From Megamerina dolium (Eukaryota > Arthropoda > Insecta > Diptera > Megamerinidae): DNA of 64,000 nucleotides. A program made the position numbers and the translations under genes. The notes beneath the pieces are model-generated. The model was not told the origin of the DNA and did no database searches. It saw only the letters and a program-made list of their open reading frames with translations. Positions 49,154 through 64,000 of the stretch are shown piece by piece. Location: the NCBI GenBank assembly GCA_963854835.1, contig OY978530.1:8403854-8467853 (forward strand), written 5' to 3'. The number at the start of each line of letters is the position of its first letter. The stretch's first letter is position 1.

Positions 49154-49533
49154 AAATTGTTGAAATGGAAAACATCTCATATGAAAGTGTGTTCAACATT
49201 TTGCATGAACATTTGCATGTAAAACAGCTATCGGCAAGATGGGTGCCACGTTTGCTCAGTGTCGAACAAAAATGAGTTCGAGAGACCACTTCACAGCGGT
49301 GTTTGGAGATAATAAAGCGTAATACTGTTGATTTTTGGCGTCGATTAATAACTGTTGATGAAACGTGGGTCCACCCCTACACACCTGAAACCAAAAATCA
49401 ATCGAAACAATGGGTGGAAGTTGGTGGAAGTGCTCCGAAGAAGGCGAAGGCAGTGAAATCGGATGGCAAGGTTATGGCCACTGTATGCACTCGGAATATT
49501 GCTTATCGATTATCTTGAAAAAGGATCCACAAT
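49154..49533 (+). repeat. Array unit 0 (partial)
   Basis: Matches the end of the master unit (44701-45080): mariner transposase from VEMENISYES through VDETWVHPYTPETK to GGATCCACAAT. The left junction joins unique DNA at a shared GCGTGA. It carries the forward-type AAACAG variant (K-Q-L). Confidence 0.93.
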
Positions 49534-50815
49534 AGTAGTAGTAGTAGTAGTAGTAGTAGTAGTAGTAGTAGTAGTAGTAGTAGTAGTAGTAGTAGTAGTA
49601 GTAGTAGTAGTAGTAGTAGTAGTAGTAGTAGTAGTAGTAGTAGTAGTAGTAGTAGTAGTAGTAGTAGTAGTAGTAGTACTACTACTACTACTACTACTAC
49701 TACTACTACTACTACTACTACTACTACTACTACTACTACTACTACTACTACTACTACTACTACTACTACTACTACTACTACTACTACTACTACTACTACT
49801 ACTACTACTACTACTACTACTACTACTACTACTACTACTACTACTACTACTACTACTACTACTACTACTACTACTACTACTACTACTACTACTACTACTA
49901 CTACTACTACTACTACTACTACTACTACTACTACTACTACTACTACTACTACTACTACTACTACTACTACTACTACTACTACTACTACTACTACTACTAC
50001 TACTACTACTACTACTACTACTACTACTACTACTACTACTACTACTACTACTACTACTACTACTACTACTACTACTACTACTACTACTACTACTACTACT
50101 ACTACTACTACTACTACTACTACTACTACTACTACTACTACTACTACTACTACTACTACTACTACTACTACTACTACTACTACTACTACTACTACTACTA
50201 CTACTACTACTACTACTACTACTACTACTACTACTACTACTACTACTACTACTACTACTACTACTACTACTACTACTACTACTACTACTACTACTACTAC
50301 TACTACTACTACTACTACTACTACTACTACTACTACTACTACTACTACTACTACTACTACTACTACTACTACTACTACTACTACTACTACTACTACTACT
50401 ACTACTACTACTACTACTACTACTACTACTACTACTACTACTACTACTACTACTACTACTACTACTACTACTACTACTACTACTACTACTACTACTACTA
50501 CTACTACTACTACTACTACTACTACTACTACTACTACTACTACTACTACTACTACTACTACTACTACTACTACTACTACTACTACTACTACTACTACTAC
50601 TACTACTACTACTACTACTACTACTACTACTACTACTACTACTACTACTACTACTACTACTACTACTACTACTACTACTACTACTACTACTACTACTACT
50701 ACTACTACTACTACTACTACTACTACTACTACTACTACTACTACTACTACTACTACTACTACTACTACTACTACTACTACTACTACTACTACTACTACTA
50801 CTACTACTACTACTA
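49534..50815. repeat. (AGT)n(ACT)m palindromic tract 0
   Basis: About 145 bp of AGT units switch at about 49678 to about 1137 bp of ACT units. AGT and ACT are reverse complements, so the tract is an inverted repeat without spacer. No interruptions were seen. Poly-Val/poly-Leu frames are artefacts. Confidence 0.97.
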
Positions 50816-51755
50816 CAGAGAAAGAAATAAAAAGATTTTTAGGGATAACAGGGTACTACCGTAAATTTATAAATGATTACGCAAAAGTAGCCCAACGCAT
50901 TACAAAATATTTAAATAAAAATGTAAAAATAAGCGTACAAGATCCAAGCTATATAGAAACATTCGAAAAGTTAAAAACATTAATTAGCTCTCATCCAATA
51001 TTGAGATACCCAAACTTTGACAAGCAATTCACATTAACCACAGACGCATCAAACTATGCAATTTGAGCAGTGCTTTCCCAAGAAGGGCACCCAGTATGTT
51101 TTATAGCAAGAACACTTTATAATCACGTGCAGTGATTAAACACTATTATTTGAAAGGGAAAACGGCGAAAGAAACAAAAGAAAAGCTCGATAAACATTAC
51201 AGTGAGTCTGCTCCGTCAGATTACATGGTAAAATATTGGATTGCTGAATTTAAACGCGGCCGAACAAGCAGTGCAACAATACCATCAACAGGAAGGCCAA
51301 AAGAGGTGGTTACTGAAGAAAATATCAAGAAAATCCTCGATATCGTTATGAATGATCGCCGAGTCAAGTTGCGTGAGATTGTTGAAATGGAAAACATCTC
51401 ATATGAAAGTGTGTTCAACATTTTGCATGAACATTTGCATGTAAAACAGCTATCGGCAAGATGGGTGCCACGTTTGCTCAGTGTCGAACAAAAATGAGTT
51501 CGAGAGACCACTTCACAGCGGTGTTTGGAGATAATAAAGCGTAATACTGTTGATTTTTGGCGTCGATTAATAACTGTTGATGAAACGTGGGTCCACCCCT
51601 ACACACCTGAAACCAAAAATCAATCGAAACAATGGGTGGAAGTTGGTGGAAGTGCTCCGAAGAAGGCGAAGGCAGTGAAATCGGATGGCAAGGTTATGGC
51701 CACTGTATGCACTCGGAATATTGCTTATCGATTATCTTGAAAAAGGATCCACAAT
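50816..51755 (+). repeat. Array unit 1, forward, 940 bp
   Basis: A complete unit: gypsy RT thumb and RNase H start (to 51066), junction, mariner N-terminal frame 51132-51497 and second frame 51525-51740, ending GGATCCACAAT. All stops and frameshifts of the master are kept. Forward-type variants: TTAAATAAAA, ACTTTATAAT and AAACAGC. Confidence 0.95.
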
Positions 51756-60953: not shown

Positions 60954-61893
60954 ATTGTGGATCCTTTTTCAAGATAATCGATAAGCAATATTCCGAGTGC
61001 ATACAGTGGCCATAACCTTGCCATCCGATTTCACTGCCTTCGCCTTCTTCGGAGCACTTCCACCAACTTCCACCCATTGTTTCGATTGATTTTTGGTTTC
61101 AGGTGTGTAGGGGTGGACCCACGTTTCATCAACAGTTATTAATCGACGCCAAAAATCAACAGTATTACGCTTTATTATCTCCAAACACCGCTGTGAAGTG
61201 GTCTCTCGAACTCATTTTTGTTCGACACTGAGCAAACGTGGCACCCATCTTGCCGATAGCTTTTTTACATGCAAATGTTCATGCAAAATGTTGAACACAC
61301 TTTCATATGAGATGTTTTCCATTTCAACAATCTCACGCAACTTGACTCGGCGATCATTCATAACGATATCGAGGATTTTCTTGATATTTTCTTCAGTAAC
61401 CACCTCTTTGGGCCTTCCTGTTGATGGTATTGTTGCACTGCTTGTTCGGCCGCGTTTAAATTCAGCAATCCAATATTTTACCATGTAATCTGACGGAGCA
61501 GACTCACTGTAATGTTTATCGAGCTTTTCTTTTGTTTCTTTCGCCGTTTTCCCTTTCAAATAATAGTGTTTAATCACTGCACGTGATTATATAGTGTTCT
61601 TGCTATAAAACATACTGGGTGCCCTTCTTGGGAAAGCACTGCTCAAATTGCATAGTTTGATGCGTCTGTGGTTAATGTGAATTGCTTGTCAAAGTTTGGG
61701 TATCTCAATATTGGATGAGAGCTAATTAATGTTTTTAACTTTTCGAATGTTTCTATATAGCTTGGATCTTGTACGCTTATTTTTACATTTTTCTTTAAAT
61801 ATTTTGTAATGCGTTGGGCTACTTTTGCGTAATCATTTATAAATTTACGGTAGTACCCTGTTATCCCTAAAAATCTTTTTATTTCTTTCTCTG
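60954..61893 (-). repeat. Array unit 5, inverted, 940 bp
   Basis: The reverse complement of a whole unit. Unlike units 1-4 it has the master-type bases at all three diagnostic sites (TTAAAGAAAA, ACTATATAAT, AAAAAGC). A private change makes the mariner proline-rich box G-L-P into one with a CCC codon (61410, G for T on the plus strand). The mariner frames are at 61212-61577 and 60969-61184. Confidence 0.95.
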
Positions 61894-63229
61894 TAGTAGT
61901 AGTAGTAGTAGTAGTAGTAGTAGTAGTAGTAGTAGTAGTAGTAGTAGTAGTAGTAGTAGTAGTAGTAGTAGTAGTAGTAGTAGTAGTAGTAGTAGTAGTA
62001 GTAGTAGTAGTAGTAGTAGTAGTAGTAGTAGTAGTAGTAGTAGTAGTAGTAGTAGTAGTAGTAGTAGTAGTAGTAGTAGTAGTAGTAGTAGTAGTAGTAG
62101 TAGTAGTAGTAGTAGTAGTAGTAGTAGTAGTAGTAGTAGTAGTAGTAGTAGTAGTAGTAGTAGTAGTAGTAGTAGTAGTAGTAGTAGTAGTAGTAGTAGT
62201 AGTAGTAGTAGTAGTAGTAGTAGTAGTAGTAGTAGTAGTAGTAGTAGTAGTAGTAGTAGTAGTAGTAGTAGTAGTAGTAGTAGTAGTAGTAGTAGTAGTA
62301 GTAGTAGTAGTAGTAGTAGTAGTAGTAGTAGTAGTAGTAGTAGTAGTAGTAGTAGTAGTAGTAGTAGTAGTAGTAGTAGTAGTAGTAGTAGTAGTAGTAG
62401 TAGTAGTAGTAGTAGTAGTAGTAGTAGTAGTAGTAGTAGTAGTAGTAGTAGTAGTAGTAGTAGTAGTAGTAGTAGTAGTAGTAGTAGTAGTAGTAGTAGT
62501 AGTAGTAGTAGTAGTAGTAGTAGTAGTAGTAGTAGTAGTAGTAGTAGTAGTAGTAGTAGTAGTAGTAGTAGTAGTAGTAGTAGTAGTAGTAGTAGTAGTA
62601 GTAGTAGTAGTAGTAGTAGTAGTAGTAGTAGTAGTAGTAGTAGTAGTAGTAGTAGTAGTAGTAGTAGTAGTAGTAGTAGTAGTAGTAGTAGTAGTAGTAG
62701 TAGTAGTAGTAGTAGTAGTAGTAGTAGTAGTAGTAGTAGTAGTAGTAGTAGTAGTAGTAGTAGTAGTAGTAGTAGTAGTAGTAGTAGTAGTAGTAGTAGT
62801 AGTAGTAGTAGTAGTAGTAGTAGTAGTAGTAGTAGTAGTAGTAGTAGTAGTAGTAGTAGTAGTAGTAGTAGTAGTAGTAGTAGTAGTAGTAGTAGTAGTA
62901 GTAGTAGTAGTAGTAGTAGTAGTAGTAGTAGTAGTAGTAGTAGTAGTAGTAGTAGTAGTAGTAGTAGTAGTAGTAGTAGTAGTAGTAGTAGTAGTAGTAG
63001 TAGTAGTAGTAGTAGTAGTAGTAGTAGTAGTAGTAGTAGTAGTAGTAGTAGTAGTAGTAGTAGTAGTAGTAGTAGTAGTACTACTACTACTACTACTACT
63101 ACTACTACTACTACTACTACTACTACTACTACTACTACTACTACTACTACTACTACTACTACTACTACTACTACTACTACTACTACTACTACTACTACTA
63201 CTACTACTACTACTACTACTACTACTACT
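61894..63229. repeat. (AGT)m(ACT)n palindromic tract 5, inverted
   Basis: About 1186 bp of AGT followed by about 150 bp of ACT, the mirror arrangement of tracts 0-3. The short-arm length resembles tract 0. No interruptions were seen. Confidence 0.97.
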
Positions 63230-64000
63230 ATTGTGGATCCTTTTTCAAGATAATCGATAAGCAATATTCCGAGTGCATACAGTGGCCATAACCTTGCCAT
63301 CCGATTTCACTGCCTTCGCCTTCTTCGGAGCACTTCCACCAACTTCCACCCATTGTTTCGATTGATTTTTGGTTTCAGGTGTGTAGGGGTGGACCCACGT
63401 TTCATCAACAGTACATCAACAGTTATTAATCGACGCCAAAAATCAACAGTATTACGCTTTATTATCTCCAAACACCGCTGTGAAGTGGTCTCTCGAACTC
63501 ATTTTTGTTCGACACTGAGCAAACGTGGCACCCATCTTGCCGATAGCTTTTTTACATGCAAATGTTCATGCAAAATGTTGAACACACTTTCATATGAGAT
63601 GTTTTCCATTTCAACAATCTCACGCAACTTGACTCGGCGATCATTCATAACGATATCGAGGATTTTCTTGATATTTTCTTCAGTAACCACCTCTTTTGGC
63701 CTTCCTGTTGATGGTATTGTTGCACTGCTTGTTCGGCCGCGTTTAAATTCAGCAATCCAATATTTTACCATGTAATCTGACGGAGCAGACTCACTGTAAT
63801 GTTTATCGAGCTTTTCTTTTGTTTCTTTCGCCGTTTTCCCTTTCAAATAATAGTGTTTAATCACTGCACGTGATTATATAGTGTTCTTGCTATAAAACAT
63901 ACTGGGTGCCCTTCTTGGGAAAGCACTGCTCAAATTGCATAGTTTGATGCGTCTGTGGTTAATGTGAATTGCTTGTCAAAGTTTGGGTATCTCAATATTG
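63230..64000 (-). repeat. Array unit 6, inverted, cut by window end
   Basis: The first 771 bp of another inverted unit, with master-type bases at the two diagnostic sites that lie inside the window. It carries a private 11-bp tandem duplication at about 63413 (CATCAACAGTACATCAACAG). The array continues beyond the window. Confidence 0.93.

What the first reader, a model, noticed from the sequence alone, without database searches (positions are those of the whole stretch)
49154..64000. Composite satellite: dead gypsy-mariner chimera alternating with kilobase (AGT)n(ACT)m palindromes
Seven copies (five complete, two partial) of a 940-bp unit are separated by trinucleotide tracts of 0.9-2.1 kb. 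The unit spans the junction between a gypsy RT/RNase H segment and a mariner that inserted in it, so it is a secondary structure with no transposition logic of its own. Each tract is an AGT run abutting an ACT run. These are reverse complements, so every tract is a spacer-free inverted repeat able to form a hairpin or cruciform with an AGT arm of 18-50 units. I know of no described dipteran satellite of this form. A possible origin is repair of tandem-duplication ends with slippage or templated synthesis, then amplification through the palindromes.
Basis: partly seen in the sequence, partly recalled or inferred. Interest (0 to 1): 0.92.

Follow-up and report, generated by a model that had tools for sequence, protein, structure and literature searches.

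The report
Transposon satellite with palindromic microsatellite linkers
A 0.9-kb piece of a dead transposon fusion has been copied into a short row whose copies are spaced by long three-letter repeats that are reverse complements of each other; the ancestral piece, without those repeats, still lies 4 kb away, so the birth of a satellite may be read step by step, provided the assembly is right.

Summary
Seven copies (five complete, 938 bp; two partial) alternate with six tracts of 902-2151 bp, each (TAG)n directly followed by (TAC)m. (1) The last two copies are inverted. (2) A complete, tract-free copy lies at 44142-45079 inside a gypsy-mariner fusion; it is the ancestral source, 3 of 938 bases different. 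(3) The five plus-strand copies (alpha) share derived bases where they cover the sites; the two inverted copies (beta) keep the source's bases, so two subfamilies meet head to head in tract 5. (4) Tracts are inherited with the copies: beta tract 50/396 units resembles alpha tracts 48/380 and 44/405, while tracts 3-5 share a TTC mark. The monomer is therefore copy plus tract, 2.2-3.1 kb.

Best explanation: a young, local transposon-derived satellite. One head-to-tail junction gained an inverted trinucleotide microsatellite, which was amplified as part of the monomer; a later exchange inside an ACT run fused two subarrays. The inverted AGT/ACT microsatellite is the unusual part; its mechanism (slippage plus fold-back synthesis) is inferred. 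The own genome could not be searched, so copy number, distribution and assembly correctness remain untested. Function: probably none.

The parts
44142..45079 (+). Source (ancestral) copy of the unit, without AGT/ACT tracts, inside a gypsy-mariner fusion
   Evidence: 99.68% over 938 bp to the array units; gypsy on its left and mariner on its right
43062..44451 (+). gypsy RT and N-terminal RNase H part, left half of the fusion (frame broken between 43898 and 43927)
   Evidence: Pfam RVT_1 8.6e-23, RT_RNaseH_2 3e-9; homolog matches 43563-43898 and 43927-44451
44451..45545 (+). mariner lacking the part before transposase residue 7, right half of the fusion
   Evidence: Pfam HTH_48 and Transposase_1; P0123 residue 7 aligns at 44451; similarity to a second mariner copy ends at 45545
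45546..45938 (+). gypsy pol resumes after the mariner
   Evidence: P0122 residues 112-237 align at 45546-45911 and P0121 residues 1-105 at 45633-45938
49152..49532 (+). U0, partial unit (unit positions 558-938), left edge of the array
   Evidence: 377 bp exact from 49156; one mismatch in 381 bp
49533..50816 (+). tract 1: (TAG)48(TAC)380
50817..51754 (+). U1, complete unit, alpha
51755..53101 (+). tract 2: (TAG)44(TAC)405
53102..54039 (+). U2, complete unit, alpha
54040..56190 (+). tract 3: (TAG)23(TAC)10 TTC (TAC)683
56191..57128 (+). U3, complete unit, alpha
57129..59114 (+). tract 4: (TAG)19(TAC)11 TTC (TAC)19 TTC (TAC)611
59115..60052 (+). U4, complete unit, alpha
60053..60954 (+). tract 5, head-to-head junction of alpha and beta: (TAG)18(TAC)11 TTC (TAC)270 TA
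60955..61892 (-). U5, complete unit, inverted, beta (bases of the source at the three alpha sites; one private change)
   Evidence: 4 differences of 938 to U1
61893..63230 (-). tract 6; on the minus strand (TAG)50(TAC)396
63231..64000 (-). U6, partial inverted unit cut by the window end, beta, with an 11-bp insertion

Best explanation
A young, local, transposon-derived satellite. Shown, if the assembly is right: the source is the gypsy-mariner fusion at 44142-45079; the repeating monomer is the 938-bp piece plus one (TAG)n(TAC)m tract; two subfamilies (alpha, and source-like beta) are joined head to head. Inferred: a 941-bp piece of the source was once joined head to tail (tandem duplication or small circle). 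That join reads CACAA-TAC-AGAG, so it brings one TAC in the phase of the later tract. Slippage, together with fold-back (hairpin-primed) copying, made a TAG run on one side and a TAC run on the other before alpha and beta split. The whole copy-plus-tract monomer was then multiplied by unequal exchange or rolling-circle reinsertion, 4 kb from the source. Finally a break inside an ACT run of the alpha array was joined to the ACT run of an inverted beta array, giving tract 5. No cellular function is needed; the AGT/ACT inverted arms would mainly make the locus fragile and let units flip.
For: Source: units are 3 of 938 different from the copy at 44142-45079, which continues into gypsy on the left and mariner on the right. 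Subfamilies: U1-U4 identical; U0 has the alpha base at the one site it covers; U5 carries the source base at 3 of 3 sites, U6 at 2 of 2 covered sites. Single origin of the junction: the four plus-strand head-to-tail tracts have identical joins, and tract 6 read on the minus strand has the same start and end. Tracts inherited with copies: beta 50/396 against alpha 48/380 and 44/405; tracts 3-5 share a TTC 10-11 units past the switch; the order of the five plus-strand TAG arms is as smooth as seen in 2 of 120 orders. Junction seed: the source's flanks share 1 base on the right and 2 on the left with the tract. Elsewhere, a bacterial MAG has (TAG)11(TAC)13 in an integrase-core frame; the TAG run stops the frame, which reads on if one TAC is kept.
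Against: No reads, no genome and no relatives of the array were seen, so it rests on one assembly. Three shared bases at the junction are weak support for a seed. In the bacterial case any removal of whole triplets keeps the frame, so it is weak too. A seed could also lie in native AGT words within 14 bases past each breakpoint (both sides at 0.7% of random positions, window chosen after seeing the data). The three TTC marks lying together at one end are expected in 24 of 120 orders, so that is no evidence by itself. Plain slippage does not make the reverse-complement run; the fold-back step is assumed. Four identical 938-bp copies could also reflect gene conversion or a repeated path in the assembly graph.
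Confidence: 0.58

Rival explanations
1. Assembly construct: the true sequence is one or a few monomers, or two separate arrays, and the assembler expanded or wrongly joined them through ACT runs.
For: U1-U4 are identical; the alpha-beta join lies inside an ACT run of 282 units, the place where a false overlap is easiest. No read data could be seen.
Against: Tracts differ in length and in TTC marks in an ordered way; alpha and beta differ at fixed sites; U6 has its own 11-bp insertion; the left edge breaks inside the unit with at most three shared bases, not at a repeat that could cause a false overlap. Tracts of 0.9-2.1 kb can hardly be assembled from short reads, so long reads were probably used (inference).
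Confidence: 0.22
2. Capped-fragment model: a linear 941-bp piece received AGT repeats on both 3' ends (a telomere-addition-like or polymerase-theta-like end extension) and the capped pieces were then fused end to end, as telomeres fuse.
For: Every unit end that adjoins a tract, left or right and in either orientation, is followed outward by AGT on the 3' strand, including the right-to-right junction. The geometry equals that of inward telomere fusions, TTAGGG run then CCCTAA run (PMC10762111, section 11 read).
Against: Head-to-tail tracts share phase and, across subfamilies, similar lengths, as expected from one junction copied many times. Tract 5 shares its TTC mark with alpha tract 4, so its ACT run is not simply the cap of U5. 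No enzyme that adds AGT is known to me (recalled).
Confidence: 0.12
3. A mobile foldback-like element: the AGT/ACT arms act as terminal inverted repeats and units transpose.
For: Long inverted arms holding tandem repeats are described for the foldback element Tetris (PMC4079207, abstract and section 19 read).
Against: In the window no arm-flanked copy lies outside the array; the one complete copy outside it has no arms. The left edge of the array cuts a unit in the middle. Target-site duplications could not be tested, since the right border lies outside the window.
Confidence: 0.05

Closest known systems
Satellites born from transposons (reviews PMC12628747 and PMC9659126, passages read; Tetris/TIR-220 of Drosophila virilis PMC4079207, abstract and section 19 read)
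   Same: Segments of transposons become tandem arrays, with unequal exchange or rolling circles as proposed routes; repeats within inverted arms can feed a satellite
   Different: Here the unit crosses two fused elements and each copy is spaced by a kilobase inverted trinucleotide microsatellite; the arms are not the transposon's own TIRs
Bari1 clusters of D. melanogaster (one passage in PMC9659126)
   Same: Tc1/mariner-superfamily sequence in clusters of about 80 repeats within an LTR retrotransposon (Stalker), anomalous rolling circle proposed
   Different: Here a mariner fragment fused to gypsy, with microsatellite linkers; that Bari1 repeats are whole elements is recalled, not in the passage seen
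Palindromic (A)n-(T)n microsatellites of Fusarium mitochondria (PMC7218506, passages read)
   Same: Two reverse-complementary microsatellite runs facing each other
   Different: Runs of 7-12 bases with a short spacer, mitochondrial, not described there as part of a satellite monomer
Fold-back inversion products: inward telomere fusions (PMC10762111, abstract and section 11 read), human inverted duplications (PMC3907307, abstract read), ODIRA (PMC4689423, abstract read)
   Same: Sequence followed by its reverse complement; head-to-head joins
   Different: Five of six tracts here join units head to tail, which a single fold-back does not give
(TAG)11(TAC)13 in an integrase-core frame of bacterial MAG contig CADEGH010000020.1 (L001)
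   Same: Same two runs, same order and no spacer
   Different: 24 units, one place, in a bacterium; the only stretch found by the genome-contig scan

Membership tests
Satellite DNA | Tandem array of similar monomers, mostly head to tail | tested here: met
   five copies in plus orientation in a row, two inverted at the end; 5 of 6 tracts join head to tail
Satellite DNA | High copy number, heterochromatic or centromeric clusters | not testable with these tools
   own genome search unanswered in 11 of 11 tries; no FISH or reads
Transposon-derived satellite | Monomer homologous to a transposon segment | tested here: met
   source copy within gypsy-mariner fusion; Pfam and homolog matches
Foldback element | Long inverted arms holding short tandem repeats | tested here: met
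   ACT run left and AGT run right of each of the five complete units
Foldback element | Dispersed arm-flanked copies | tested here: inconclusive
   none in the window outside the array; the genome was not seen
Foldback element | Target-site duplication | not testable with these tools
   right border of the array lies beyond the window end
Complete mariner inserted in gypsy | Both element ends present at the insertion site | tested here: not met
   5' part missing, fusion at transposase residue 7; the 3' TIR was not tested

The most novel reading that the evidence does not exclude
A satellite whose monomer is bounded by inverted trinucleotide arms that are its own amplification device: outward AGT 3' ends fold back, prime copying, flip units between arms and fuse arrays, much as telomere repeats are proposed to do in fold-back fusions, so that a dead transposon fragment gained foldback-element behaviour without any transposase.
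Probability: 0.12. Interest if true: 0.8.

Novelty: new variant of a known kind. Interest (0 to 1): 0.5.

Why it matters
The tract-free source, the derived and the source-like subfamily, the tract lineage marks and the head-to-head join all lie in one 20-kb stretch. That makes the order of events at a satellite's birth testable: junction first, inverted microsatellite next, block amplification, then array fusion. Long inverted AGT/ACT runs should also be a fragile site worth measuring. If the assembly is wrong, it matters as a warning about inverted microsatellites in assemblies.

Tried and rejected
Native-seed idea: I first thought ACT ACT ACA (gypsy) and AGT AGT (mariner) were native at the unit's ends. 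The source copy reads CCTAAAACAGAG and CACAATCACAGG, so this is wrong; the second mariner copy at 25827 also reads CACAATCACAGG. Insertion of the unit into one microsatellite: rejected, since both flanks would then have the same polarity. AGT words within 14 bases past both breakpoints: noted, 0.7% of random positions, but the window was chosen afterwards, so not used as proof. Whether the 11-bp insertion of U6 is a tandem duplication: the check was misplaced and gave no answer.

Searches with nothing: the unit-AGT junction and the AGT/ACT switch in viral contigs, 0 each, the opposite order 0, although 94 stretches there hold (TAG)10 (one listed, none studied). None of the 175 homologous proteins held (120 listed of 387, 2 of 2, 53 of 53) has a V, S, T, L or Y run of six or more. 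Literature: ten searches (one search held no paper, one search listed 12 of 32, 12 of 13) listed no paper that I recognised as this structure by title and start of abstract; only the papers cited here were opened (also PMC4367827, passages: its main satellites are 154-182 bp and predominantly head to tail).
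Full report
Observation. The interval 49152-64000 holds seven copies of one unit and six tracts. The complete units are 938 bp. The tracts are 902, 1284, 1338, 1347, 1986 and 2151 bp; they make up 9,008 of 14,849 bp, 61%. Every tract is TAG units followed at once by TAC units: 48/380, 44/405, 23/694, 19/643, 18/282 and, read on the minus strand, 50/396, where the second numbers of tracts 3-5 include one, two and one TTC units. 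The 15 tandem-repeat rows of the window show no other AGT/ACT tract.

Orientation. U0 to U4 are in plus orientation, U5 and U6 in minus orientation. In both orientations a complete unit has an ACT run on its left and an AGT run on its right, so each outward 3' strand carries AGT. Insertion of a unit into one microsatellite cannot give this.

Source. A complete copy without any tract lies at 44142-45079, 4,073 bp before the array. It differs from U1 at 3 of 938 positions. Homologous gypsy proteins (P0055, P0059, P0063) align on the left in two pieces, ending at 43898 and running from 43927 to 44451, with a break of about 28 bases between; they end at ...RTLNNH or ...RTLNEH. The mariner homolog P0123 begins at 44451 with residue 7. 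Gypsy resumes from about 45546, with P0122 residues 112-237. P0122 holds RNase H domains and the later region in one protein, so the mariner lies within a gypsy pol. The mariner 5' end and about 90 residues of gypsy (P0122 19-111) are lost at the fusion. One in-frame stop is seen in the gypsy part after the break and one in the mariner part of the source, and the same stops appear in the unit. The source is thus ancestral: its flanks are those of the two transposons, while the array units have tracts instead.

Subfamilies. U1-U4 are identical. U0 covers one of the three sites that separate U1 from the source and has the alpha base. U5 has the source's base at all three and one private change; U6 covers two of the three and has the source's base at both, plus an 11-bp insertion. 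The alpha changes at positions 100 and 631 replace lysines. The gypsy lysine is kept in 4 of the 5 gypsy relatives fetched (the distant P0077 differs) and the mariner lysine in the 5 of 6 fetched mariner relatives that reach the site, both by eye. So alpha is most likely the derived state.

Lineage of tracts. Beta tract 6 (50/396) resembles alpha tracts 1 and 2 (48/380, 44/405). Tracts 3, 4 and 5 have short TAG arms and a TTC 10-11 units beyond the switch. The order of the five plus-strand TAG arms is as smooth as seen in 2 of 120 orders; the three TTC marks lie together at one end in 24 of 120 orders, so that alone is no evidence. The tract was therefore probably long before alpha and beta parted, and the monomer is copy plus tract, 2,222 to 3,089 bp, the head-to-head tract 5 left out. 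Tract 5 begins like tract 4, so the join between alpha and beta most likely lies farther along its ACT run.

How it may have begun. Joining the source's ends head to tail gives CACAAT+ACAGAG, which contains one TAC in phase with the tracts. A bacterial MAG contig shows (TAG)11(TAC)13 in a frame that matches integrase-core domains (rve 2.9e-6, below its curated cut-off). The TAG run stops that frame, and it reads on if only one TAC is kept, though any removal of whole triplets would do so. Two unrelated cases of TAG before TAC suggest, but do not show, a common way of growth: slippage, then fold-back copying. By calculation (AGT)17 folds weakly (-3.6 kcal/mol), (ACT)17 not at all, and the switch region of tract 5 folds into a long hairpin (-49.8 kcal/mol; shuffles -36.4 on average; z -5.8). 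A fold-back route has been postulated for inward telomere fusions of the same geometry (PMC10762111, section 11). That these arms drive amplification here is not shown.

Artefact? The ordered tract differences, fixed base differences, private changes and a left edge inside a unit with at most three shared bases speak for a real array. The identical alpha copies and the unseen reads leave room for error. The own genome was never reachable, and this is the main gap.

Known kin. Transposon-derived satellites are well known (PMC12628747 and PMC9659126, passages); Tetris shows tandem repeats within inverted arms feeding a satellite (PMC4079207); short (A)n(T)n palindromic microsatellites are described in Fusarium mitochondria (PMC7218506). 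A kilobase inverted trinucleotide microsatellite as linker of a transposon satellite was not seen in the listings of ten searches of this library, which holds only open-licence papers.

Host. Named hits of the gypsy RT include Hermetia illucens (68% over 49% of the query), Bactrocera latifrons (63% over 50%), the moth Eumeta japonica (51% over 90%; 68% over 41%), the beetle Popillia japonica and a fungus. An insect is likely, a fly plausible, neither proven.

Noticed in passing
window 11462-14535 and 22742-25814: Two copies, 96.2% alike over 3,074 bp, of a non-LTR retrotransposon; frames of the first match endonuclease and RT domains. The second lies between two pieces of a mariner (22438-22493 and 25827-26499) related to the one in the source.
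   Followed up: partly
window 41088-41921, plus strand: Frame with a match to the baculovirus F / envelope-like family (Pfam Baculo_F, 1.5e-12), upstream of the gypsy pol; perhaps an env relic of another LTR element.
   Followed up: no
window 32810-33598, plus strand: Frame of 262 aa with Tc1/Tc3-type transposase helix-turn-helix domains.
   Followed up: no
window 270-797, minus strand: Another mariner-type transposase fragment (Transposase_1, 2.4e-14).
   Followed up: no
window 48509-48677: A near-tandem duplication of 66 bp (91% alike) and a short inverted repeat just left of the array, perhaps a sign of earlier rearrangement.
   Followed up: no
L001 3020-3092: (TAG)11(TAC)13 without spacer inside an integrase-core frame of an uncultured bacterium MAG; only stretch found by the genome-contig scan for the AGT/ACT switch.
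   Followed up: partly
window 63231-64000: The last unit carries an 11-bp insertion not seen in the other copies that cover the place; the array runs off the window end, so its right border is unknown.
   Followed up: no
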